IMG/VR virus record: IMGVR_UViG_3300025646_000024 | Span: 1-64,000 of that record | DNA: 64,000 nt | Source of the DNA: a virus | Strand: one strand, 5' to 3' | In this document: positions 11,456 through 63,683 of the stretch, piece after piece | Numbering within the stretch: position 1 is the first letter of the stretch | How the letters are laid out: every line of letters starts with the position of its first letter | The notes under the pieces: model-generated | What the model saw: only the letters and a program-made list of their open reading frames with translations | Database searches by the model: none | What the model was told of the DNA's origin: nothing | Position numbers and translations under genes: made by a program

Positions 11456-11486
11456 TGGGGGCTACAAGCCCCCTTTTTTATAAATA
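11456..11486 (+). promoter_or_regulatory. Terminator fused to an exact late promoter
   Basis: The hairpin GGGGGCT/AGCCCCC is followed by T6 (to about 11479), and the T-run runs straight into TATAAATA (11479-11486). This ends early transcription and starts late transcription of the next two genes, marking them as a late island. Confidence 0.75.
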
Positions 11487-11508: not shown

Positions 11509-12150
11509 ATGTACGAAATAATCAGAGAAAAAGACGAAGTAGAAATTGGCTCTAAGACTGGTGGGTTAGTTCCAAAGAAAAAAAGAAGTCCAGCTAATCA
11601 ATATAAGTATGAAAAAGAAAGAAGAGAAAATTTAAAGAAGAAACCAGGAATGACTGGTGATAGTCCATTGATTCAAGCACTTCGTAGAAGAGCACAAGTC
11701 ACTGGAAACTATGCAGAAAGCAAATCGTATTCTCAGTTCCTTGAAGAAGCATTTAAGAGAACAGGTAAAACAATAGGTTTCAAGGTATTTCATCATGGAT
11801 CTGATGCAGACTCAGTTAAAAGCATAAAGAAAGGTGGACCCAAACCATCACCAAAGGGAAGTGAAGGTCCAGGGCATTATGTTACTCCAGATAAAAAGAA
11901 AGCAGACAAATATGCAGAGTTTACTTCTAAACAGAGAAAGAAAAAGCCAGCAACAGTATCATACAGAGTACCAAGCAAAAGAGTAGCTAAAACAGATACT
12001 ATTCCAAAGGGACTGACATCACAGCAAAGAACAACAAAGGAAAAGCCAGTCATTCAAAATACTAGAACTGGTCATGTTGCCATGGATGCAGATTATGCAA
12101 ATTCAAAAATGATACGTAATCCATCACCAACTATTCGTAAAAGAAAGTAA
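11509..12150 (+). CDS. Putative capsid-targeted ADP-ribosyltransferase-like protein
   Basis: The 213-residue basic protein contains SYSQFLEEA at residues 73-81, matching the T4 capsid-targeting sequence (MKTYQEFIAEA in internal proteins), with a gp21-type cleavage context L-E-E|A. Next comes FHHGSDADSVKSIKKGG (94-110) and GHYVTPDKKKADKYAEF (122-138), the H-G-[ST] and G-x-Y-x-T...A-x-x-YA pattern of small ADP-ribosyltransferase/PARP-like folds. A catalytic Glu is not obvious (E178 is a candidate). An exact late promoter sits directly upstream, as expected for a virion protein. The role, an enzyme packaged in the head and injected like T4 Alt, is inferred. Confidence 0.55.
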   Translation: MYEIIREKDEVEIGSKTGGLVPKKKRSPANQYKYEKERRENLKKKPGMTGDSPLIQALRRRAQVTGNYAESKSYSQFLEEAFKRTGKTIGFKVFHHGSDADSVKSIKKGGPKPSPKGSEGPGHYVTPDKKKADKYAEFTSKQRKKKPATVSYRVPSKRVAKTDTIPKGLTSQQRTTKEKPVIQNTRTGHVAMDADYANSKMIRNPSPTIRKRK

Positions 12151-13938
12151 ATGGCTTTAGAAAAATGGGATTTAGGCAAAGAGCTTATGCAATGTCTTGC
12201 ATTTGCTCATTTTGCTGTATATAAGTATTCTAAAAGGACAGAAGATGAACATGAACAATTATTCTATGATTTGTTTGATCCAGATATAGCTATTGATACA
12301 AAACCATATAAAAAGCATCTGGGCGAAAACTTTCAATTCACTAGAGTGTTTGAAAACTGGCCAACCACACTCACACCTGCGACTGGAGAAAAGAGTGTCG
12401 ATATTGGAGTCAAAATAGTTTATGATGTAGCTAAAAATTTTTATCATAGAAATTTAATATCTAAAAACTTTCAGTTGTATCAATTTGTAGATCAGACAGA
12501 TCCATTCATGAAATTGATTAAAACTGAGTGTTTATCTAAAATAATAAAGGCAGCTAAATTGCCAATTAAAGAAGATGTATTGTCGAGTGCAGATATTTAC
12601 ATTGTGAAGATAGCAGAAAAAAACAAAATTGAAACTGAATTCACAAATGAAATACTGAGAAAATCTGATTTATATTTAATCAATAACTTTGATAAGTATA
12701 ATGAAATACTAGAAGCACATTGGACCAAACATTCTTTATTTGGAGTGTCGTTAAAACTTCCATCTACCAATGGGACAAAAAATATAAAAATAGTTGGAAA
12801 GAAAGATAATAAAATTGGAAAGAAAATGCTTAAGCATGTTGATCCATATAGTAAATTTATTGCTATGCTTTCTGATCCAAATGCAAACATTAACAAACTG
12901 ATAACTGAAACAGTAATATTTGATCACAATGGTATGGATATCAATAGAGTGGGGCAATGGAAATTTCCAGTAACTTTTAGATATAAAGAGTTGGGATTAT
13001 ATGAAAATGATGTGAAGTTTAATTTACTGGCATGGCCAAAAGCACAAAAAGATGGAGGGGGCACTGCAGGATTCAACGGACAATTTTTTGATACTCCTGG
13101 ATATAGTTCTCAGTGGGTGGGTGGAACTGGAGTCAAACCACTTGAGAATTTTCTGTTTAAATATCCAGAATTTAATAGAATTAATAATGAATTAATATCT
13201 ATTCGTAAAAAGGCATTAAATTATGCTCTATCTGGCAGTGTAAACAAATCAGTTAATTTAACCCAACAAATCAATACTGATATACAAGTAAATAAACCAA
13301 TTGGATCTGGCAAAACACCAGTCTATAGAAAATTAAAGAAGACCGATCCCAAGACTTCATATACTAAAGATGGCATGTATTCTAGAATGACTTATTTGAA
13401 GGGTCAGCAAGGGAAATATGATTACGGTGCCAATCCAACAAAAGATACTAAAAATTATAAAATGAAAATTAATAACTTGCAGACTTTATATTCCAGAGCA
13501 AAGCGAGATATATCAAAACCAGTATTTGTAGCTGGATCTGAGAGACAAAGTAGTTTAATTAAATTTATATCAGAATACGAATCTGCTACTGGGAGATCAA
13601 ATATATTAAATATCTATAGAACTGCAGTTGTAAATTTAATTTTAAAAAAAGAGCTACAGCATGGATTGAATAGAGATGATTCTGAAATTAAAACTCATTT
13701 TGAGAATGCTCAAATATCATATTTTTTAACTCGTGGTGGCCCAAATTTACATCTATACTTAAAGCAAAGAATATTCTTAACTGTATTTGGGGTTATTACA
13801 AAAAAATCATATAAAGTGTTCTTGAATAATATGACTGGAACTACACAAATGATTAGTGCAATTAAAGCACAAGTTATGAAAAGTATGATGAAAAATATAA
13901 AAGAGTTTGATACGGTACCACACTTCTACATGTCTTGA
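12151..13938 (+). CDS. Large unidentified protein co-transcribed with the ART-like gene (595 aa)
   Basis: Begins on the base after the previous stop, so it shares the late promoter at 11479. The protein is Lys- and aromatic-rich. Residues about 145-220 contain SSADIYIVKIAEKN and, about 60 residues later, LFGVSLKLPSTNGTKNIKIVG. The order (x-D-I-Y-I ... G-V-S-L-K) resembles the core of PD-(D/E)XK nucleases that have an SLK variant of motif III, but this is weak. No capsid-targeting motif is present. No other domain is recognised. Its stop codon overlaps the -35 box of the next promoter. Confidence 0.6.
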   Translation: MALEKWDLGKELMQCLAFAHFAVYKYSKRTEDEHEQLFYDLFDPDIAIDTKPYKKHLGENFQFTRVFENWPTTLTPATGEKSVDIGVKIVYDVAKNFYHRNLISKNFQLYQFVDQTDPFMKLIKTECLSKIIKAAKLPIKEDVLSSADIYIVKIAEKNKIETEFTNEILRKSDLYLINNFDKYNEILEAHWTKHSLFGVSLKLPSTNGTKNIKIVGKKDNKIGKKMLKHVDPYSKFIAMLSDPNANINKLITETVIFDHNGMDINRVGQWKFPVTFRYKELGLYENDVKFNLLAWPKAQKDGGGTAGFNGQFFDTPGYSSQWVGGTGVKPLENFLFKYPEFNRINNELISIRKKALNYALSGSVNKSVNLTQQINTDIQVNKPIGSGKTPVYRKLKKTDPKTSYTKDGMYSRMTYLKGQQGKYDYGANPTKDTKNYKMKINNLQTLYSRAKRDISKPVFVAGSERQSSLIKFISEYESATGRSNILNIYRTAVVNLILKKELQHGLNRDDSEIKTHFENAQISYFLTRGGPNLHLYLKQRIFLTVFGVITKKSYKVFLNNMTGTTQMISAIKAQVMKSMMKNIKEFDTVPHFYMS

Positions 13939-19281: not shown

Positions 19282-19620
19282 ATGCGTACTTTCAGACAAT
19301 TCCTAGAAGAAGCAAAGAAGAAGAAGCCACTATATTCCGAAAAGCAAATCATGAAAGCCCTAAACAAACAAGGTGGAATTGGTGGTAAAGCAGTAGAAAA
19401 GTATAATCAACAGAATCCAGATAGAGGACCAAGAGAGTATAAACTAGGTGAAGATATTCAACAGAGACAACAACAACTTAATACAACACAGAGAGAAAGA
19501 CTACAAGCAGAAAGAGAAAGAGTAGCAAAGTATAAAGCAAAGAGACAAGCAGATGTAGAGAGAGAAGATGAACAAGATGAAATTATTAAACGAATAGAAA
19601 TCATTAACAAAAATAAGTAG
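19282..19620 (+). CDS. Small charged protein with N-terminal capsid-targeting motif
   Basis: From ATG 19282 the protein starts MRTFRQFLEEAKKKK, almost identical in plan to the T4 internal-protein targeting peptide MKTYQEFIAEA, and includes the gp21 cleavage context L-E-E|A. The remaining 100 residues are Lys/Arg/Gln/Glu-rich and helical (RQQQLNTTQRERLQAERERV), like a DNA-associated internal head protein. An ATG at 19258 would add eight residues. A late-type promoter precedes it even though its neighbours are early genes. Packaging with DNA and injection are inferred by analogy to T4 IPI-III. Confidence 0.65.
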   Translation: MRTFRQFLEEAKKKKPLYSEKQIMKALNKQGGIGGKAVEKYNQQNPDRGPREYKLGEDIQQRQQQLNTTQRERLQAERERVAKYKAKRQADVEREDEQDEIIKRIEIINKNK

Positions 19621-26875: not shown

Positions 26876-27514
26876 TTAGTCTTTACCTCTCTTTGGATTT
26901 TCAACTCCTAGTCTTGCTCTTGCAGAATTACGATTCAATCTGAATCTCTTAGTCAGGTCTTTACCTGTCTTAACTGCTTCTTTTCCTTCTTTAGACTTTC
27001 TAAATTGCTTTTCTTGTGATGCCATGCTTTTCATCACAAATCTTGGAACTGGCTGATCTCTTTTTGCATTTCTTGCAAATGATCTCCTTTGTGATGTTCT
27101 AGGTGATACTGTAGTAATAGATCTAAAATCAGCATCTTTCTTTAGACTATCATCAGTGCTCTTTTTAAACTTTGGATTAACATTAGTGTTATCCTGAATT
27201 CTTGGCTTAGATTTATCTGCGTTTCTTAGTCGATTCATTGTAAGTTTGTGGACTTCAGGAAACTTAGATTGATTAGATCTATTACCATGAATTGTTTCTC
27301 GTGCATCATCATATCCAGTTGCAGTTCCACCAGTCTTCTTGGCTAGCCCTTTTGCCATTGTTGATTTACCAGAGCCAGGCATTCCAGCCATTTTAATATC
27401 TAATGGTGCACTAGATTTGCCACTCTTTGCACCTGGCTTTGGTGTTCTACCTTGCTTTGATGCAACTTGTGATCTTCTAGAAGATTCTAAAAGAAATTCA
27501 GAATATGTCTTCAT
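26876..27514 (-). CDS. Capsid-targeted P-loop kinase (PNK/zeta-like)
   Basis: The only minus-strand gene found. The 212-residue protein begins MKTYSEFLLESSRR, very close to the T4 internal-protein targeting peptide MKTYQEFIAEA, with L-L-E|S as a possible gp21 cleavage site. A P-loop kinase follows: Walker A GMPGSGKST (44-52), YDDAR (68-72) and DNTNVNPKF (108-116), the DxTN signature of polynucleotide-kinase-like enzymes, then a long basic tail. The minus-strand upstream region contains ATAAATAT, a late-promoter variant. The combination suggests a kinase packaged in the head and delivered into the host. The substrate is unknown. Confidence 0.7.
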   Translation of the reverse strand: MKTYSEFLLESSRRSQVASKQGRTPKPGAKSGKSSAPLDIKMAGMPGSGKSTMAKGLAKKTGGTATGYDDARETIHGNRSNQSKFPEVHKLTMNRLRNADKSKPRIQDNTNVNPKFKKSTDDSLKKDADFRSITTVSPRTSQRRSFARNAKRDQPVPRFVMKSMASQEKQFRKSKEGKEAVKTGKDLTKRFRLNRNSARARLGVENPKRGKD

Positions 27515-55906: not shown

Positions 55907-56458
55907 ATGTCTGTACTTAAAGTCGTGCAAAATATTGCTGCAGTAGCTTGCACTGGTGGTAATGCTGTTCAATCTGCAGCCGTCATTGTTAAAAGTGGAA
56001 TTTATCGTTTCACTGCTGATACAAGTGACGCAATCCATGTTGCTTGGGGTGGCAATCCAACTGCAGTAGATGGAAATGACTTTCATATTCCAAAAGAGAA
56101 TTCTGAGATTGTGAAGTGTGCAACTCCCAAAAAAGTAAGAATTACTTCAATCACTAAAGGAGCAACAAATACTGTAATGAATATTCCACTTGATACTGGT
56201 ACTCCTGGACATCCTTTTGCAGTTGGTGATTATGTAACTCTCACTGGATCTTCCGTTGCTGCATATAATACTGGAATTGCACACTTAGCAGTTACAGCAG
56301 TTACCGATACTTCAATTACAGTTGCACTAGATTCATCTGAATATGCTGCATTCACTGGAACTGCAACTCTTTCTAATTCAATCAAGTTTTCTGTAAAGCC
56401 TGATGGAAATGGTGCTGCTACAGGACACATCACTGAAGTACAGATTGTAGGTGGATAA
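55907..56458 (+). CDS. Beta-rich virion protein (183 aa)
   Basis: All-beta composition with Gly, Thr and Val: SGIYRFTADTSDAIHVAWGG then FAVGDYVTLTGSSVAAYNT and TVTDTSITVALDSSEYAAFT (approximate). Looks like a jelly-roll or Ig-like head-decoration or fibre protein. It lies between the terminase subunits, a place where T4-like cyanophages often carry extra virion genes. Ends on the first base of the next gene's ATG region (TAATG). Confidence 0.6.
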   Translation: MSVLKVVQNIAAVACTGGNAVQSAAVIVKSGIYRFTADTSDAIHVAWGGNPTAVDGNDFHIPKENSEIVKCATPKKVRITSITKGATNTVMNIPLDTGTPGHPFAVGDYVTLTGSSVAAYNTGIAHLAVTAVTDTSITVALDSSEYAAFTGTATLSNSIKFSVKPDGNGAATGHITEVQIVGG

Positions 56459-57513
56459 TGGCACAAAAAAGAGTTCCTACTGAAAAAGAGATTGCCAAAA
56501 AACATGGCGTATCTGTAGATTATGTTACACGACAAGCTGAGATAGGCTCTACAGTAGAAAGAGAGCATGTCACCAAGCATGACGAAGCCTACAATATTGC
56601 ACTTCAGCATATAGCAGAATTTCCAGATTACTACAAGCATTTACTCAAAATGGAAAAGAAACTCAAGGGAGAATGGAAAAATGGAAAAAAAGCCGTTAAA
56701 GAAGAAAAAGAAGAGACTCGTTATTGCCATCTTTGCGAAAAGCCAGAAAAAAAATCTGAATGTTCTTATGGACCTAGTGCATGGGAAATGAACACTAGTC
56801 TTTTGAACATGCAAGAAGATCATAAAGAAATTGCATCTGGAAAGATGAAAGATCATGAAGGTTACATGGCAAAACTTGAATTGGATCAAATGGAAAGATC
56901 TATTGCCATGCTTCGCAAAGTTATTCGCAAATCAAATCAACAACTTCCAGCTTGGGTGCAATCTAAAATTACCAGAGCTGCTGATTTTGTAGATACTGCT
57001 GCAGAATATCTTTCATCTGATGAAAAATTAAGTGAACAAAAATCATTTTCACAGTTTGTGAGAGAGGCTAGTTTTGAAATTGATCCCGAACATAATAGAT
57101 TCAAAAAACAAAAAAAGATTAGAGATCTTGCAGTTAGAACCAACAATCGTGGAGAAAGGACAGCTGCAGAAAGAAAAATAACAGGACCAGCTTATCAAAA
57201 ACCAAAACCACAAAAAACTGTGTATATTCAACGAAGCGGTCAATTAAATACTGAGGGGGCTGCATGGCAACGTAAAGAAGGTAAAAATCCCACAGGAGGA
57301 CTAAATGCTGCAGGTAGAGCTTCTGCTAAAAAACAAGGAATGAATTTGAAACCTCCAGTTACTAAACCACCTTCAGAATTAAATCCAGATTCAGAAGCAG
57401 CTAAAAGAAGAAATTCATTCTGTGCAAGAATGGGAGGAAATCCTGGACCAATGAAAGACGAAAAAGGTAGACCAACAAGAAAAGCATTAGCTTTGCGTAA
57501 ATGGAATTGTTAA
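56458..57513 (+). CDS. DUF5661/DUF6321 protein with internal capsid-targeting motif (351 aa)
   Basis: Residues 8-65 (EKEIAKKHGVSVDYVTRQAE ... EHVTKHDEAYNIALQHIAEFP) match DUF5661. Residues 89-102 hold CHLC...C, a possible zinc site. Residues 163-185 read LPAWVQSKITRAADFVDTAA, and 196-204 are SFSQFVREA, a capsid-targeting/gp21-cleavage-like motif. Residues 266-351 (EGAAWQRKEGKNPTGGLNAA ... FCARMGGNPGPMKDEKGRPT) match DUF6321. Cutting at V-R-E|A would separate two halves. The position between gp16 and gp17 and the motif suggest a packaged internal protein. Function unknown. Confidence 0.7.
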   Translation: MAQKRVPTEKEIAKKHGVSVDYVTRQAEIGSTVEREHVTKHDEAYNIALQHIAEFPDYYKHLLKMEKKLKGEWKNGKKAVKEEKEETRYCHLCEKPEKKSECSYGPSAWEMNTSLLNMQEDHKEIASGKMKDHEGYMAKLELDQMERSIAMLRKVIRKSNQQLPAWVQSKITRAADFVDTAAEYLSSDEKLSEQKSFSQFVREASFEIDPEHNRFKKQKKIRDLAVRTNNRGERTAAERKITGPAYQKPKPQKTVYIQRSGQLNTEGAAWQRKEGKNPTGGLNAAGRASAKKQGMNLKPPVTKPPSELNPDSEAAKRRNSFCARMGGNPGPMKDEKGRPTRKALALRKWNC

Positions 57514-57528
57514 TTTAAATTAAACATT

Positions 57529-59205
57529 ATGAGTGAAAGATCTAGTTATAAAGGTAATCCTAATTTAAAACCTTCTAACGTACAAATACAATTTACTTCT
57601 GAGCAATTAGAAGAGTATTTAAAGTGTCAAGAAGATCCAATTTATTTTGCGAAAAAATATATTAAAATTGTTTCTCTTGATGAAGGTCTAGTGCCTTTTA
57701 AGATGTGGGACTTCCAGGAAAAGTTGATTGATAATTTTCACAAGCATAGATTCAATATTGCAAAGCTTCCTAGGCAAACTGGTAAGTCAACAACTGTTGT
57801 CTCTTACCTACTTCATTATGCTCTTTTTAATCCCAACGTAAAAATAGCGATTCTTGCAAACAAAGCGGAGACCTCAAGGGAACTTCTATCCAGATTGCAG
57901 TTATCATACGAAAACCTACCTAAATGGCTACAGCAGGGAGTGGGTTCTTGGAACCGTGGCTCGCTTGAACTAGAAAACGGATCGAAGATTATTGCAGCAT
58001 CTACTTCCTCATCTGCAGTCCGAGGTAACTCTTTTAACATCATCTTCCTTGACGAGTTTGCGTTCATTCCAAACCATATTGCAGAACAGTTCTTCAGTTC
58101 TGTATACCCAACTATTTCGTCTGGTAAGACAACCAAAGTTATTATCATTTCCACTCCAAATGGAATGAACATGTTCTACAAGTTCTGGCATGATGCAGAA
58201 CGAGGAAAGAACAGTTATACCCCACTTGAAGTTAACTGGTGGGATGTTCCAGGTAGAGACCAAAAGTGGAAAGAAGAAACTATTGCAAACACTTCTCAGA
58301 GGCAGTTTGAGCAGGAGTTTGAATGCACATTCTTAGGATCTGTTGATACTCTCATCAATCCAAATAAATTACGTTCAATGGTTTATGAGGACCCACTAAA
58401 ACGAAGTGGGGGACTAGATATCTATGAAGAGGTTATTGAAGGCCATGATTATGTAATGACTGTTGATGTTGCACGAGGAGTTGGAAATGATTACTCTGCA
58501 TTTGCTGTTGTAGATGTTACTACAATTCCATATAAATTAGTAGCAAAATATAAAAATAACGAAATTAAACCAATTCTGTTCCCTAATATTATTGATACAG
58601 TAGGACGTAATTATAATAACGCCAACGTATTAGTAGAAGTTAATGATATTGGTGGACAGGTAGCTGACATTCTTCAGTTTGATTTAGAGTATGACAACTT
58701 GCTCATGTGTGCAATGAAAGGTCGTGCAGGTCAGATTGTAGGCACTGGATTTTCAAATAAAGCACAGCTAGGTGTAAAAATGACCAAAGCTGTGAAAAAA
58801 TATGGTTGTGCTAATTTAAAAGCATTGATTGAAGATGATAAGTTATTAGTTCCAGACTATGATATTATTAGTGAATTGACAACGTTTATCCAAAAAAGTG
58901 ATACCTTCAATGCAGAAGAAGGTTGCAATGATGACCTTGCGATGTGCCTTGTAATTTTCTCTTGGTTATCCACTCAACCTTACTTTAGGGAGCTTACTTC
59001 AAATGACGTTAGGAAAAGAATTTTTGAAGATCAAAGAGAGGCTATCGAGCAGGATATGGCTCCATTTGGTTTTATATTGGATGGCTTGACTGATGATGAG
59101 ACTACATTTGTAGATACTAAAGGAGACTATTGGGTGTCTGCAACAGATAGCAAATGGAATGTTGATGAATATGGTGACATGGCGTACATGTGGGAGTATA
59201 AGTGA
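57529..59205 (+). CDS. 17: Large terminase subunit gp17
   Basis: 558 residues (T4 gp17: 610). ATPase: Walker A LPRQTGKST (about residues 80-88) and Walker B IIFLDEFAF with D175-E176, followed by the coupling motif STPNG. Nuclease: DVARGVGNDYSAF with D313 first, then VEVNDIG and NDDLAMCLV as the later metal-binding residues. The protein translocates and cuts concatemeric DNA at the portal. The order gp17-gp18-gp19-gp20 downstream is as in T4. Confidence 0.96.
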   Translation: MSERSSYKGNPNLKPSNVQIQFTSEQLEEYLKCQEDPIYFAKKYIKIVSLDEGLVPFKMWDFQEKLIDNFHKHRFNIAKLPRQTGKSTTVVSYLLHYALFNPNVKIAILANKAETSRELLSRLQLSYENLPKWLQQGVGSWNRGSLELENGSKIIAASTSSSAVRGNSFNIIFLDEFAFIPNHIAEQFFSSVYPTISSGKTTKVIIISTPNGMNMFYKFWHDAERGKNSYTPLEVNWWDVPGRDQKWKEETIANTSQRQFEQEFECTFLGSVDTLINPNKLRSMVYEDPLKRSGGLDIYEEVIEGHDYVMTVDVARGVGNDYSAFAVVDVTTIPYKLVAKYKNNEIKPILFPNIIDTVGRNYNNANVLVEVNDIGGQVADILQFDLEYDNLLMCAMKGRAGQIVGTGFSNKAQLGVKMTKAVKKYGCANLKALIEDDKLLVPDYDIISELTTFIQKSDTFNAEEGCNDDLAMCLVIFSWLSTQPYFRELTSNDVRKRIFEDQREAIEQDMAPFGFILDGLTDDETTFVDTKGDYWVSATDSKWNVDEYGDMAYMWEYK

Positions 59206-59219
59206 CCTCAAAATATAAA

Positions 59220-59227
59220 GATAAATA
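59220..59227 (+). promoter_or_regulatory. Late-promoter-like GATAAATA
   Basis: GATAAATAAATAG about 40 bp before gp18; one base from consensus. Confidence 0.5.
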
Positions 59228-59266
59228 AATAGTTTTGAGAAAAAAAATCTCATAGAGGTAATAAAC

Positions 59267-61282
59267 ATGGCGTTTGCTTCACCTGGAGTATCTATCAAGG
59301 AAGTTGACTTAACTCCTACAATTAATGTATCTGACCAAAATATTGGAGCAGTTGTAATTGCTGCCGAAACTGGTCCTGTAGATACTGTAACTTTTGTTAC
59401 TAGTGAAAAGGAATTAGTAGACACATTTGGTAAACCAAATGATAATAACTACGAGTCTTGGTTTGCTGCATCAACTATCATTCAGTACGGTGGTATTGCA
59501 GCTGTAGTTAGACCAACAAGTTCAAACATTGTACTAAACTCTTCATCTGATGCTGGATTAGCTAGCTTCATCATCAAGAGCAAGTTTGATTTTGATAACT
59601 ACAGTGGAACCGCATTCAAATTTGCTGGCAGAAGTGCAGGTTCACTATTCAATTCAATTAAAGTAGTTGCAGTTGATCATGGTGCAGATCAAGTAATCAC
59701 TTATACTGGAGCAGATCCTTCAGTAGTTGCTGGAGATGCAATTAGAATTCTAAATGGCGGAACTCTACTTGGCACTGGATGGATCTATAAAGTAGACCCC
59801 ACTGCAAATACACTCCACATTATTCTAAATGATAGTACTAAGAGAATTCCATCCACTGGAACTGCTACATATAGCATCACAGATAATGCTGGAACTCCTG
59901 TAGTTCTAGTTGCAGCTGGAGAAATTGGATCAGTAAATAATACTTACTACGATACTCTTGAGTATGCATCTGGATTAAAGTGGAGAGATGTAGCACCTCA
60001 GCCAGGAACATCTGCGTCAGTAGCCGCTAAAGGCGGCAAGTTTGATGAAATGCACATCCTTGTTATTGATGAAGATGGTAATATTTCTGGCACTCCAAAT
60101 ACAATTCTAGAAAAATATCTATTTGTTTCAAAAGCAAAGGATGCAAGCACTCTAGATGGATCACTAGTGTATTTCTATAGCGCAATCGCAGAAAGATCCA
60201 AGTACATCTTCCCAGGATATTCAACTGAATTAGATTTTATTAGCACTTCAAAAATTACACTAGAAGGAGTAACTAATACATCTATTGGAGAAACAAATAG
60301 TGCAAATAAGGTCTTTTCTCCAATTTTAAACGCAGGCTCTTCAGTTCTAGGTTTCAGTCTAACAGGTGGTACTGACTATGACTTTACTAATGATGCTTCT
60401 GACATCGCAGCAGCAGTAACTAATGGATATGAGCTTCTCAGAGATTCTGAAACATTCAATGACGTAGATTTTCTAATCCCAGGTAGCATCAACCTTGATA
60501 GAGCAGCTAAGCTAATTGACATCGCAGAATCAAGAAGAGATTGTGTAGCAGTAATTTCTCCAAGAAGATCTGATGTAATTAACAGCTCAACCAGTGATGT
60601 TAAAACTGAAAACATTGTAGATTTCTTCAGTGGAATTGCAAGTAGCTCATTTGCAATGTTCGACTCTGGATATAAGTACATCTATGATAAGTTTAATGAC
60701 ACATATCGCTACGTACCTTGTGCTGCTGACGTTGCAGGTCTTTGCATTAATACTACTATTAATTCAGAAACTTGGTTCTCACCAGCAGGTTATAACAGAG
60801 GCAATCTAAGAAACGCAACCAAACTTGCATATTCACCAAAACAATCAGAAAGAGACAGACTCTATACAAATAGAATCAACCCAATTGTTTCCTTCCCAGG
60901 TCAAGGCATTGTTCTCTTTGGAGATAAGACTGCACTATCTTCTCCTAGTGCTTTCAATAGAATTAATGTTCGCAGACTGTTTATTGAAATTGAAAAGAAC
61001 ATTGCAAGATTCTCTAAATTCCAGCTATTTGAAATTAATGATGAAGTAACCAGAAGTTCATTCAAAGCTGCAGTAGAGCCTTACCTCAGAGGGGTTCAAG
61101 GTAGAAGAGGAATTTATGATTTCCTTGTTGTATGTGACGAAACTAATAATACTTCTGATGTCATTGATAGAAATGAATTTAATGCTGAGATTTATGTTAA
61201 ACCTGCGAGAAGCATTAACTTTATTACCATTACCTTTACTGCTACAAGAACTGGTATTTCCTTTGGCGAACTAACTCAGTAA
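59267..61282 (+). CDS. 18: Tail sheath protein gp18
   Basis: 671 residues (T4 gp18: 659). MAFASPGVSIKEVDLTPTIN then GAVVIAAETGPVDTVTFVTS is the sheath N-terminal pattern. The C-terminal region KLAYSPKQSERDRLYTNRIN, VLFGDKTALSSPSAFNRINV and RRLFIEIEKNIARFSKFQL is the conserved core domain of contractile sheaths. It polymerises around the gp19 tube and contracts during infection. Good ribosome-binding site AGAGGTAATA upstream. Confidence 0.96.
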   Translation: MAFASPGVSIKEVDLTPTINVSDQNIGAVVIAAETGPVDTVTFVTSEKELVDTFGKPNDNNYESWFAASTIIQYGGIAAVVRPTSSNIVLNSSSDAGLASFIIKSKFDFDNYSGTAFKFAGRSAGSLFNSIKVVAVDHGADQVITYTGADPSVVAGDAIRILNGGTLLGTGWIYKVDPTANTLHIILNDSTKRIPSTGTATYSITDNAGTPVVLVAAGEIGSVNNTYYDTLEYASGLKWRDVAPQPGTSASVAAKGGKFDEMHILVIDEDGNISGTPNTILEKYLFVSKAKDASTLDGSLVYFYSAIAERSKYIFPGYSTELDFISTSKITLEGVTNTSIGETNSANKVFSPILNAGSSVLGFSLTGGTDYDFTNDASDIAAAVTNGYELLRDSETFNDVDFLIPGSINLDRAAKLIDIAESRRDCVAVISPRRSDVINSSTSDVKTENIVDFFSGIASSSFAMFDSGYKYIYDKFNDTYRYVPCAADVAGLCINTTINSETWFSPAGYNRGNLRNATKLAYSPKQSERDRLYTNRINPIVSFPGQGIVLFGDKTALSSPSAFNRINVRRLFIEIEKNIARFSKFQLFEINDEVTRSSFKAAVEPYLRGVQGRRGIYDFLVVCDETNNTSDVIDRNEFNAEIYVKPARSINFITITFTATRTGISFGELTQ

Positions 61283-61314
61283 TTAATTTTTTGTAAACCA
61301 TCTAGGAGAACACA

Positions 61315-61950
61315 ATGGCTAAGAGTATCTCAGATTTCAAATCATATTTAAAAAAAGGTGGGGCAAGACCTAACCTATTCCTCGTTAGATTAAATTTTCC
61401 ATCACAACTTAACCAAGTTTTAGATATTGAATCCCGTGGTGGATCTTCAGCTGGAAATTTAACTACTCAAGCTGAATTTTTAGTAAAAACAGCTCAAATT
61501 CCAGCATCAAACATTGGAACTATTGAAGTTCCATATCGTGGAAGAATGCTTAAAGTTGCTGGAGATAGAACTTTTGAACCATGGTCAGTAACAGTTGTAA
61601 ATGATGGCAATTTTGAAATTCGTAAAGCATTTGAAACTTGGTCAAGAGGAATTAATGCACTAACTGAAAACGTATCTCAGTTAGGTTATGGTGCAGATGG
61701 TGGAGCATCTTATTGTGTAGACATGACTGTATTCCAACTCAGCAGAGATGGACAAGCTCCAAGTAGAACACCAGACAGCAATAATTCTGGAACAGATGGA
61801 ATGGAAACCATTCGTGCATATAAGTTTTATGACGCATGGCCTTCAGCAATTTCTTCAATTGATCTTTCTTTTGAAGCAAATGACCAAATTGAAGAGTTTA
61901 CTGTAGAATTTCAGTACAACTTCTTTGAAGTTACCAAGGATAAAGTTTGA
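61315..61950 (+). CDS. 19: Tail tube protein gp19
   Basis: 211 residues, somewhat longer than T4 gp19 (163). Segments SISDFKSYLKKGGARPNLFL then VRLNFPSQLNQ and IPASNIGTIEVPYRGRMLKV with TFEPWSVTVVNDGNFEIRKA are the tube-protein signature. The insertion with SRDGQAPSRTPDSNNSGTDG lies near the C-terminal third. Forms the hexameric ring stack of the inner tube. The ribosome-binding site AGGAGAAC is strong. Confidence 0.95.
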   Translation: MAKSISDFKSYLKKGGARPNLFLVRLNFPSQLNQVLDIESRGGSSAGNLTTQAEFLVKTAQIPASNIGTIEVPYRGRMLKVAGDRTFEPWSVTVVNDGNFEIRKAFETWSRGINALTENVSQLGYGADGGASYCVDMTVFQLSRDGQAPSRTPDSNNSGTDGMETIRAYKFYDAWPSAISSIDLSFEANDQIEEFTVEFQYNFFEVTKDKV

Positions 61951-61951
61951 T

Positions 61952-61959
61952 ACTAAATA
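61952..61959 (+). promoter_or_regulatory. Late-promoter-like ACTAAATA
   Basis: ACTAAATAC immediately after the gp19 stop, about 27 bp before gp20; the same variant as at 19246. Confidence 0.45.
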
Positions 61960-61985
61960 CTATATAAAGAGTTTTTAGGATTATT

Positions 61986-63683
61986 ATGACTCAATTATTT
62001 GGTTTCTCAATTGAAGACAGAAAAAAGAAACCAGCAAAGGCGTTTTCACCAGCGCCTCCTAATGATGATGATGGCACCTCAGTAGTAGCTGCAGGTGCCT
62101 ATTTTGGTCAATACCTAGACTTAGACGGTGTTGGTCAGCACAACAACGAATTTGAGCTGGTTAGAAAGTATAGAGAAATTGCATTACACCCAGAAATTGA
62201 TAGTGCTATTGATGATATCATTAACGAAGCAATCAGCAGTGATTTAGATTATGCTCCAGTAGCAGTAGAACTATCCACATTAGAAGCTAGTGATAAAATT
62301 AAAAAATCAATCAAAGAAGAATTTGGTAATATTTTAAGACTACTAAGTTTTGATAAAAAGTGCCACAATATCTTTCGTCGCTGGTATATTGACGGAAGGT
62401 TATATTACCATAAAATCATTGACTTTGATAAACCAAAAGAAGGAATCAAAGAATTAAGATATATTGATTCCCTCAAAATTAAAAGAGTACGAGAAATTAA
62501 AAGGCAAAAAAATGTAGATTCTCTAACCACCATGGAAGGTCAGAAGTATGACTATGGTGAGTTTATTGAGTATTACATTTATTTCCCAAGAGGCTACAAA
62601 GGTTCAGACGCCAACGGAATTAAAATTTCAAATGATGCAGTTACTTATGTAACATCTGGATTGTTTGACCACAACAGAAATATGGTTCTTAGTTATCTGT
62701 ACAAGGCAATTAAGGCTGTAAATCAACTTAGAATGATTGAAGATTCACTAGTAATTTACAGATTATCTCGTGCTCCAGAGCGTAGAATTTTTTATATCGA
62801 CGTAGGCAATTTACCTAAAGTAAAAGCAGAGCAGTATCTACGAGAAGTGATGGGTAGGTATAGAAATAAACTCGTATATGATTCTGCTACTGGAGAAATT
62901 CGTGATGATCGCAAGCATCTAAGTATGCTTGAAGATTTTTGGCTACCAAGACGAGAGGGTGGTCGTGGCACAGAAATCACTACTCTTCCAGGTGGACAAA
63001 ACCTTGGAGAACTTGAAGATGTCAAGTATTTCCAGAAGAAACTCTACAAGTCACTAAATATTCCTCTCTCAAGACTAGAGCAAGAAAGCTCATTTACCAT
63101 TGGTAGAACTAACGAAATCACTAGAGATGAACTTAAGTTTGCTAAATTTGTTGGTAGACTCCGTAAGCGTTTTAGTGAACTATTCCATGATCTTCTCAGA
63201 ACTCAGTTAATTCTAAAGGGAATTATTACTGCAGATGATTGGGAAGAAATGAAAGAATTTATTCAGTATGATTATATTTTTGATAATCATTTTACTGAAC
63301 TAAAAAATTCTGAGATGATGAATGATCGTCTCAATATTGTCAATCAAGTTGAGCCATATCTTGGCAAATATTTTTCAGTTGAATATGTTCGTAGACAAAT
63401 TCTTAAGCAGACTGATGATGAAATTGAAGAAATTGATATGCAAATTGAGAATGAAAAACAACTTGGAATTATTCAAGATCCGAATGCAATGATGATGGAT
63501 CAGCAAGGTATGCTTCCACCTGGCCAAGATCAAGCCATGCAAGGTGATATGGCTGCATCTGGTGAAGCTGGACCTGCTGGAGGTGGCATGTCTGGTGGTT
63601 CTGGTGGAGCTAACGGAACTGGGTTGGATGCGGAGTTTAAAAAATTTGTTTCTCCGTCAGATTACGGAAAGGGCAAATTTTAA
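61986..63683 (+). CDS. 20: Portal vertex protein gp20
   Basis: 565 residues (T4 gp20: 524). EFELVRKYREIALHPEIDSA then IDDIINEAISSD and RAPERRIFYIDVGNLPKVKA plus TTLPGGQNLGELEDVKYFQK are the diagnostic conserved blocks of this widely used marker. The end is Gly/Ala-rich (GMSGGSGGANGTGL). Forms the dodecameric portal at the head vertex, binding gp17 during packaging and gp13/gp14 later. Confidence 0.96.
   Translation: MTQLFGFSIEDRKKKPAKAFSPAPPNDDDGTSVVAAGAYFGQYLDLDGVGQHNNEFELVRKYREIALHPEIDSAIDDIINEAISSDLDYAPVAVELSTLEASDKIKKSIKEEFGNILRLLSFDKKCHNIFRRWYIDGRLYYHKIIDFDKPKEGIKELRYIDSLKIKRVREIKRQKNVDSLTTMEGQKYDYGEFIEYYIYFPRGYKGSDANGIKISNDAVTYVTSGLFDHNRNMVLSYLYKAIKAVNQLRMIEDSLVIYRLSRAPERRIFYIDVGNLPKVKAEQYLREVMGRYRNKLVYDSATGEIRDDRKHLSMLEDFWLPRREGGRGTEITTLPGGQNLGELEDVKYFQKKLYKSLNIPLSRLEQESSFTIGRTNEITRDELKFAKFVGRLRKRFSELFHDLLRTQLILKGIITADDWEEMKEFIQYDYIFDNHFTELKNSEMMNDRLNIVNQVEPYLGKYFSVEYVRRQILKQTDDEIEEIDMQIENEKQLGIIQDPNAMMMDQQGMLPPGQDQAMQGDMAASGEAGPAGGGMSGGSGGANGTGLDAEFKKFVSPSDYGKGKF

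What the first reader, a model, noticed from the sequence alone, without database searches (positions are those of the whole stretch)
11509..12150. Putative injected ADP-ribosyltransferase under a late promoter
After the targeting motif come HHGS...GHYVT...ADKYA, matching the H-[G]-[S/T] and Y segments of small PARP/ART-like folds. T4 packages the ART Alt in its head and injects it to modify RNA polymerase; no Alt homologue is otherwise seen here. This would be an unrelated, much smaller enzyme filling the same role in a cyanophage. The catalytic Glu is not identified.
Basis: partly seen in the sequence, partly recalled or inferred. Interest (0 to 1): 0.75.

Follow-up and report, generated by a model that had tools for sequence, protein, structure and literature searches.

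The report
Head-packaged ADP-ribosyltransferase-like protein of a cyanophage
A virus of cyanobacteria carries a small ADP-ribosyltransferase-like protein with an address tag that should load it into the virus head and deliver it into the host with the DNA, much as phage T4 does with a quite different enzyme, although the usual catalytic glutamate is missing and activity is unproven.

Summary
The ORF at 11509-12150 is real, and its ADP-ribosyltransferase (ART) reading holds at the level of fold. A conserved uncultured-cyanophage family (16 sequences, window included) has an AlphaFold domain (residues 91-200, pLDDT mostly 82-93) whose listed structural matches are essentially all ART-fold proteins (Tpt1/KptA, PARP, ExoA, diphtheria-type). 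His96 and Tyr124 are kept by all 14 aligned members.

In front of the domain lies a T4-type capsid targeting sequence (CTS) ending in a (L/I/V)xE|A prohead-protease site. All 16 keep the four positions published as CTS determinants. The same genome encodes the protease. Short members simply begin with the CTS (MKTYTQFIAEA; T4 IPIII: MKTYQEFIAEA). Ackermannviridae phages carry homologues (PHROG 4700; Pfam ART-PolyVal above cut-off); one, LIMEstone1 ORF173, was reported in virions by mass spectrometry, on one peptide.

So: probably a head-packaged, injected ART-fold effector. No Glu is invariant in the ART domain; the catalytic-Glu column appears to hold invariant His189, so it is not a canonical H-Y-E enzyme. 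Activity, target and delivery are untested. A close relative (L007) has lost the ART domain, so it is dispensable. Head-packaged ARTs are a known idea; this is a new variant. The window phage also carries a CTS-tagged kinase-like protein.

The parts
11457..11478 (+). terminator-like hairpin (GGGGGCTACAAGCCCCC + T run) ending the preceding transcription unit
   Evidence: consensus scan; sequence
11479..11486 (+). T4-type late-promoter-like element TATAAATA
   Evidence: ATAAATA or CTAAATA also upstream of the other family members except L027 (window)
11509..12150 (+). ORF, 213 aa: CTS-tagged ART-fold protein
   Evidence: family
11509..11721 (+). N-terminal extension (residues 1-71), found here only in the window, L001, L002 and L007; its first ~47 residues recur with another C-terminus in Synechococcus phage S-SRM01; low-confidence structure
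11722..11751 (+). capsid targeting sequence KSYSQFLEEA (residues 72-81); predicted prohead-protease cut between E80 and A81
   Evidence: CTS rules in PMC9026906; T4 ipII/ipIII sequences
11776..12117 (+). ART-fold domain (about residues 90-203)
11794..11802 (+). motif 1, H96-G97-S98 (NAD-binding His of the ART fold)
11878..11886 (+). motif 2, Y124-V-T126
12064..12087 (+). motif 3 region, R186-T-G-H189-V-A-M-D193; H189 is where the catalytic Glu of other ARTs appears to map
   Evidence: mapping by alignment end points, with catalytic residue numbers recalled
12151..13938 (+). next ORF, 595 aa, unknown; a large ORF follows the ART gene in several relatives, with a helicase ORF after it in most of these

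Best explanation
The gene makes a late, virion-packaged effector of a T4-like cyanophage. It is transcribed from a T4-type late promoter. Its CTS draws it into the prohead core; the phage's prohead protease then cuts after E80, removing the N-terminal propeptide and leaving a basic (pI about 10.5) mature protein of about 133 residues that is an ART-fold domain. It is ejected with the DNA and binds NAD+ through the H96/Y124 pocket, early in infection, to ADP-ribosylate a host (or host-defence) molecule. Because the catalytic Glu is absent, transfer would be mono-ADP-ribosylation with an acceptor that carries its own negative charge (acidic side chain or phosphate). Shown by computation: fold, CTS, conservation, presence of the protease gene, virion homologue in another phage family. 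Inferred: cleavage, ejection, NAD+ use, catalysis, target.
For: Fold: model with pLDDT 82-93 over most of residues 91-200; VIA Z 8.5 to Tpt1 over 85 residues (rmsd 2.8), 7.8 to tankyrase over 109, about 7.5 to ExoA, with all 50 listed rows being ART-fold proteins by their titles and my knowledge of them; viral library best hit a Salmonella-phage protein named ART-PolyVal-like, E 8.3e-5. Homology: PHROG 4700; Ackermannviridae members score above the ART-PolyVal cut-off (47.2, 41.5 and 37.9 against 31.2 bits); cyanophage and Ackermannviridae profiles align over CTS plus first ART half with Prob 97, E 9e-11. Packaging: published CTS determinants (positions 4, 7, 8, 10) fit 16 of 16; T4 ipII/ipIII CTS differs from that of L028 by 2 of 11 residues; Peptidase_S77 gene at 64017-64466 of the same record; homologue LIMEstone1 ORF173 found in virions by mass spectrometry. 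Function: conserved H/Y, dN/dS 0.13 in one pair. Glu-less activity is possible in principle: a review states that some PARPs without the catalytic Glu stay active and that a charged acceptor may take over its role (PMC10789625, passages).
Against: No invariant Glu in the ART domain among 14 members, and the profile match to the Glu-bearing homologues stops after the first half of the domain. Foldseek gave no PDB hit below E 1e-3 (best 0.027), and Z of 7-8.5 is modest by the tool's own note. The window protein itself is below both Pfam cut-offs. The virion evidence is one peptide (11.84% coverage) in one distant homologue. Ackermannviridae homologues are acidic (pI about 5), not basic. The ART domain is absent in the close relative L007.
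Confidence: 0.58

Rival explanations
1. Pseudo-enzyme: an ART-fold protein without catalytic activity, packaged as a basic internal head protein that binds DNA, NAD+, ADP-ribose or a host target (in the way T4 IPI, an internal protein, inhibits a restriction enzyme).
For: No invariant Glu; pI 10.5-10.9 for all 16 predicted mature forms, like T4 internal proteins (8.9-9.5, whole proteins); T4 IPI as a restriction inhibitor (PMC9026906, table passage).
Against: H96, Y124, R143, H189 and D193 are invariant in 14 of 14, more than a mere basic filler needs; the Ackermannviridae homologues have an invariant Glu at the expected place (E139).
Confidence: 0.25
2. Injected enzyme whose acceptor is a phosphate (RNA or DNA ends, or a nucleotide second messenger) rather than protein, chemically nearer to Tpt1/KptA.
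For: Best structural Z is to the NAD lobe of Tpt1; [quoted passage not shown] invariant R143 stands four residues before P147, as R stands before P in E. coli KptA RHGSP.
Against: Three of the four tetrad residues lie in an RNA lobe for which no counterpart shows here; a Gly stands where the fourth, Arg121, would fall by my reading; profile comparison with E. coli KptA is not significant (Prob 0.9).
Confidence: 0.15
3. A toxin of a toxin-antitoxin or lysis-timing pair with the large downstream ORF, made late and acting in the infected cell without packaging.
For: A large ORF follows the ART gene directly in the window and in 6 of the 12 ART loci listed (L001, L003, L004, L006, L022, L026; L002 is cut off after the gene and cannot be judged); ART folds are common in toxin pairs (rows).
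Against: The large ORF persists beside the ART-less gene in L007, while L021, L023, L024, L027 and L028 have the ART gene without it next door; the CTS is then unexplained.
Confidence: 0.04

Closest known systems
PHROG 4700 / LIMEstone1 ORF173 (Ackermannviridae, 'unknown structural protein')
   Same: N-terminal CTS-like MKTF..., first half of the ART domain (HGS, GxGFYLT, YA), late promoter annotated in LIMEstone1
   Different: Acidic; C-terminal half does not align; has invariant E139 in the RE(V/I)V strand
Phage T4 Alt
   Same: ART packaged in the head, processed at the N-terminus by gp21, ejected, not essential (PMC9026906, passages)
   Different: Alt belongs to the R-S-E clade (PMC9503650, section 27); Alt is much larger (recalled); no PF03496 match here
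Phage T4 internal proteins IPI-IPIII
   Same: CTS: MKTYQEFIAEA in ipII/ipIII against MKTYTQFIAEA in L028; small and basic
   Different: T4 internal proteins are not known as enzymes (recalled); the mature part here is an ART fold
Pfam DUF3990 (PF13151) and ART-PolyVal (PF18760)
   Same: HGS...GxGxYxT core
   Different: Window protein is below both cut-offs and matched only in the first half of the domain
Tpt1/KptA NAD lobe
   Same: Closest solved fold by Z (8.5); HG(S/T) motif
   Different: No RNA lobe counterpart seen; sequence profile match not significant
Cyanophage A4 pre-ejectosome, PDB 9k3a chain B (residues 1420-1600)
   Same: ART-like stretch in a protein of the pre-ejectosome of a cyanophage (Z 8.0 to the Ackermannviridae model)
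   Different: Part of a very large protein, not a CTS-tagged small one; paper not found in the library

Membership tests
ADP-ribosyltransferase fold superfamily | ART fold | tested here: met
   All 50 VIA rows are ART-fold proteins, Z 7.4-8.5; Foldseek E-values weak (best 0.027)
ADP-ribosyltransferase fold superfamily | motif-1 His and motif-2 Tyr | tested here: met
   H96 and Y124 invariant in 14 of 14
H-Y-[EDQ] clade of ARTs | third-motif Glu/Asp/Gln | tested here: not met
   No invariant Glu or Gln in the ART domain; end points of the VIA alignments put the Glu of six enzymes (numbers recalled) at 189-190, His-Val here. The invariant D193 lies 3-4 residues away, so a shifted Asp cannot be wholly excluded
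Pfam ART-PolyVal (PF18760) | curated cut-off 31.2 bits | tested here: not met
   16.5 bits, 16.8; Ackermannviridae homologues 37.9-47.2 bits, met
Pfam DUF3990 (PF13151) | curated cut-off 32.2 bits | tested here: not met
   15.5 bits; other members shown 21.2 and 21.5 bits
T4-type CTS-bearing head protein | CTS positions 4, 7, 8, 10 and a prohead-protease site | tested here: met
   16 of 16: Y/F4, F7, L/I/V8, E10; in the window, L001 and L002 the CTS is internal, not N-terminal
T4-type CTS-bearing head protein | matching prohead protease in the same phage | tested here: met
   Peptidase_S77 E 5e-36 at 64017-64466
T4-type CTS-bearing head protein | presence in virions in cleaved form | not testable with these tools
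   Only by analogy: LIMEstone1 ORF173, one peptide
T4 Alt (Alt/VIP2 family) | R-S-E type ART domain | tested here: not met
   H/Y type motifs; no PF03496 match in the record
Tpt1/KptA | Arg-His-Arg-Arg tetrad and RNA lobe | tested here: inconclusive
   Profile comparison not significant; structural match covers the NAD lobe only

The most novel reading that the evidence does not exclude
T4-like cyanophages use the capsid targeting sequence as a general address label for a set of injected enzymes: a Glu-less (H-Y-H) ART, a P-loop kinase-like protein (window 26876-27514, minus strand; next to the ART gene in L027) and a GNAT acetyltransferase (L022). Scanning for the CTS would then list their injected effectors directly, and the ART would represent an unrecognised head-packaged ART class with a non-Glu third residue.
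Probability: 0.35. Interest if true: 0.78.

Novelty: new variant of a known kind. Interest (0 to 1): 0.62.

Why it matters
Head-packaged ARTs have been proposed to be widespread in contractile-tailed phages (PMC9503650, abstract and section 27), but this small CTS-plus-ART form carries no function name in the tools used (PHROG 4700 is 'unknown function'). If right, it says what a family of 'unknown structural proteins' in Ackermannviridae does, suggests that cyanophages attack their hosts enzymatically at the moment of injection, and gives a simple sequence label (CTS plus late promoter) for finding further injected effectors. The split between a Glu-bearing version and a Glu-less version with the same tag and the same NAD-binding half is a natural experiment on ART chemistry.

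Tried and rejected
Membership in DUF3990 or ART-PolyVal by curated cut-off: not met. NCBIfam: nothing. PDB by sequence: only one chance-level row. Tpt1/KptA homology by profile: not significant. DUF3990 example from a Planococcus plasmid: E 2e-4 but Prob only 45, first half only. T4 Alt-type ART in the same record: none (perhaps a fragment, so weak). Relatives in 84,980 species genomes: 8 pattern matches, none a relative by tblastn. Cultured cyanophages: P0001 matched only the N-terminal extension in S-SRM01; two further family members searched (L004, L028) gave mostly enterobacterial records and no cyanophage among the rows shown. TATAAATA as a window-wide signal: not enriched. No sigma-70-type site and no Rfam family around the gene. 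Toxin-antitoxin pairing with the downstream ORF: not supported by context.

An early reading that the Glu of EKPVV (residue 178) might be catalytic was dropped: it is D, K, Q or A in six members (L006, L023, L024, L026, L027, L028).

The mapping of the catalytic-Glu column to residue 189-190 comes from counting back from the end points of VIA rows without seeing the alignments; residue numbers of the catalytic His and Glu in those enzymes are recalled. As a check, the same count gives H96 for the catalytic His in six enzymes, and E139 for tankyrase on the Ackermannviridae model; on the latter model the count for diphtheria-type rows falls two residues off.

Literature searches made. None of these listings showed the cyanophage family or CTS-tagged ARTs in cyanophages; the library lacks most subscription journals.

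Full report
What is there. Window 11509-12150 (+) encodes 213 residues. A terminator-like hairpin at 11457-11473 is followed directly by TATAAATA at 11479-11486. The phage is a T4-like cyanophage: the terminase-to-portal stretch (57529-63680) is nearest to Synechococcus myoviruses at about 69% nucleotide identity, and the window lies in an 80,263-base virus record.

Family. IMG/VR scans gave 7 loci with the window protein and 15 with an alignment of its C-terminal part, partly the same contigs. I aligned 16 sequences (15 loci plus the window); L007 was left out of that set because its ART part is missing, and L017, L018 and L020 because they repeat contigs of L002, L003 and L005. Thirteen of the 16 are short proteins of 139-145 residues that begin with the CTS; the window, L001 and L002 carry an extra 70-residue N-terminal extension. 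The first ~47 residues of that extension recur in Synechococcus phage S-SRM01 with a different C-terminus. A scan of 84,980 species genomes found no relative. For the 14-row alignment I left out two near-duplicates (L002, L005); 50 of 142 columns are invariant, among them H96, G97, S98, Y124, T126, R143, H189 and D193 in window numbering.

Targeting. The T4 review PMC9026906 (passages seen) reports that the first 10 residues of IPIII suffice for packaging, that residues 4 and 7 matter most for targeting and 8 and 10 for processing. In the 16 sequences position 4 is Y or F, 7 is F, 8 is L, I or V, 10 is E, and 11 is A, without exception. T4 ipII and ipIII begin MKTYQEFIAEA; L028 begins MKTYTQFIAEA. 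L006 also touches PHROG 2667 'internal head protein' over residues 1-51, weakly (E 0.0073). A prohead-protease gene (Peptidase_S77, E 5e-36) lies just past the window at 64017-64466. Predicted mature forms are basic, pI 10.5-10.9.

Virion evidence by homology. tblastn with L004 found 217 phage records at E up to 10, nearly all enterobacterial; those examined are Ackermannviridae. Their proteins start MKTF..., match PHROG 4700 (E 3e-86 for LIMEstone1 ORF173) and exceed the ART-PolyVal cut-off in the three tested. LIMEstone1 ORF173 is annotated 'confirmed structural protein' with a putative late promoter; [quoted passage not shown] The cyanophage and Ackermannviridae profiles align from residue 1 through the third ART strand (Prob 97, E 9e-11) and not beyond.

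Fold. The model of the window protein has mean pLDDT 74 (extension poor, residues 91-200 mostly 82-93) and pTM 0.53. Foldseek against the PDB gives weak E-values (best 0.027), with a list that is ART-fold almost throughout (one row, IcmR-IcmQ, I did not classify). VIA gives Z 8.5 (Tpt1, 85 residues, rmsd 2.8), 7.8 (tankyrase-2, 109 residues), 7.5 (ExoA, 109), 7.4 (diphtheria toxin, 107), with all 50 rows ART-fold. The Ackermannviridae model (pLDDT 79, pTM 0.75) gives Z 8.8 and 8.4 to ART toxins and 8.0 to a stretch of a cyanophage A4 pre-ejectosome protein. By the tool's own note Z below 8 alone may mean little; the case rests on the uniformity of the list together with the sequence profile evidence.

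The missing Glu. No Glu in the ART domain is invariant. Counting back from the end points of the VIA rows, the catalytic His of ExoA, cholix, diphtheria toxin, PARP3, tankyrase-1 and -2 falls on H96 each time, and their catalytic Glu on 189 or 190 (residue numbers recalled, internal gaps not seen). Residue 189 is an invariant His. The Ackermannviridae branch keeps an invariant Glu, E139, at the place given by the tankyrase rows. Absence of the Glu does not exclude activity: PMC10789625 (passages) says that a charged acceptor may take over its role, which could explain active PARPs without it. It makes an inactive NAD-binding or purely protein-binding protein a serious rival.

Loss in a relative. 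L007 keeps promoter, extension and CTS, but its ORF is 92 residues; the ART motifs are gone and the 3' end still aligns with the end of the window gene. The exact break points are uncertain because the pairwise alignment placed a short 9-base match inside the gap. So the ART domain is dispensable, as Alt is in T4.

Context. In the window, L001, L003, L004, L006, L022, L026 and the ART-less L007 a large ORF (587-694 aa) follows, and in most of these a helicase ORF comes next (the window's is a DNA helicase by Pfam and PHROG). The large ORFs are partly related to one another and match no Pfam or PHROG family convincingly in those tested; the window's has no match in cultured phages. L021, L023, L024, L027 and L028 lack it beside the ART gene; L002 is cut off there.

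Other CTS-tagged proteins. The window has a P-loop kinase-like protein with CTS at 26876-27514 (-) (Pfam AAA_33 1.7e-9; PHROG polynucleotide kinase 4.8e-11), with no match in cultured phages; 2 of 8 related records searched carry it, and in L027 its homologue lies directly upstream of the ART gene. L022 has a CTS-tagged GNAT acetyltransferase (Pfam 1e-8).

Comparison with what is known. PMC9503650 (abstract, section 27, passages) already argues that ARTs are often packaged into virions of contractile-tailed phages, from gene context and from MuF or portal fusions. The present family differs in being a stand-alone small domain behind a T4-type CTS and in lacking the Glu. Hence 'new variant of a known kind'. 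Other papers were seen only as passages: PMC5694885, PMC7697877, PMC10892097, PMC11721090, PMC7824862, PMC6333775, PMC9026906 again.

My estimates: ART fold 0.93; packaged in the head 0.85; injected 0.75; active on NAD+ 0.55; acts on RNA polymerase 0.15.

Noticed in passing
window 26876-27514 (-): P-loop kinase-like protein beginning with a CTS (MKTYSEFLLES); 71% identical homologue in L027 lies directly upstream of the ART gene, 93% identical one in the record of L007.
   Followed up: partly
L022:4549-4932: CTS-tagged GNAT acetyltransferase (MKTFSQFIAEA..., Pfam Acetyltransf_7 1e-8).
   Followed up: partly
window 19282-19620 (+): 112-aa Lys/Glu-rich protein starting with a CTS (MRTFRQFLEEA); no Pfam or PHROG match.
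   Followed up: no
window 56458-57513 (+): 351-aa protein with an internal CTS-like motif near residue 195, between DUF5661 and DUF6321 domains.
   Followed up: no
window 12151-13938 (+): Large unknown ORF after the ART gene; fast-diverging family followed by a helicase gene in several relatives, no match in cultured phages.
   Followed up: partly
L009:4995-5675 (S-SRM01): The N-terminal extension of the window protein occurs there in front of a different C-terminal part: a mobile module of unknown role.
   Followed up: partly
L010:4495-4953 and counterparts in L011-L016: The gene after the ART homologue in Ackermannviridae encodes a second structural protein (PHROG 3852) starting MPTSKLFESE in LIMEstone1, perhaps another targeting peptide.
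   Followed up: no
L054:706-3393: 895-aa phage protein with what looks by eye like two ART cores (YHGT and GAGFYLT) in its C-terminal third, polyvalent-protein style.
   Followed up: no
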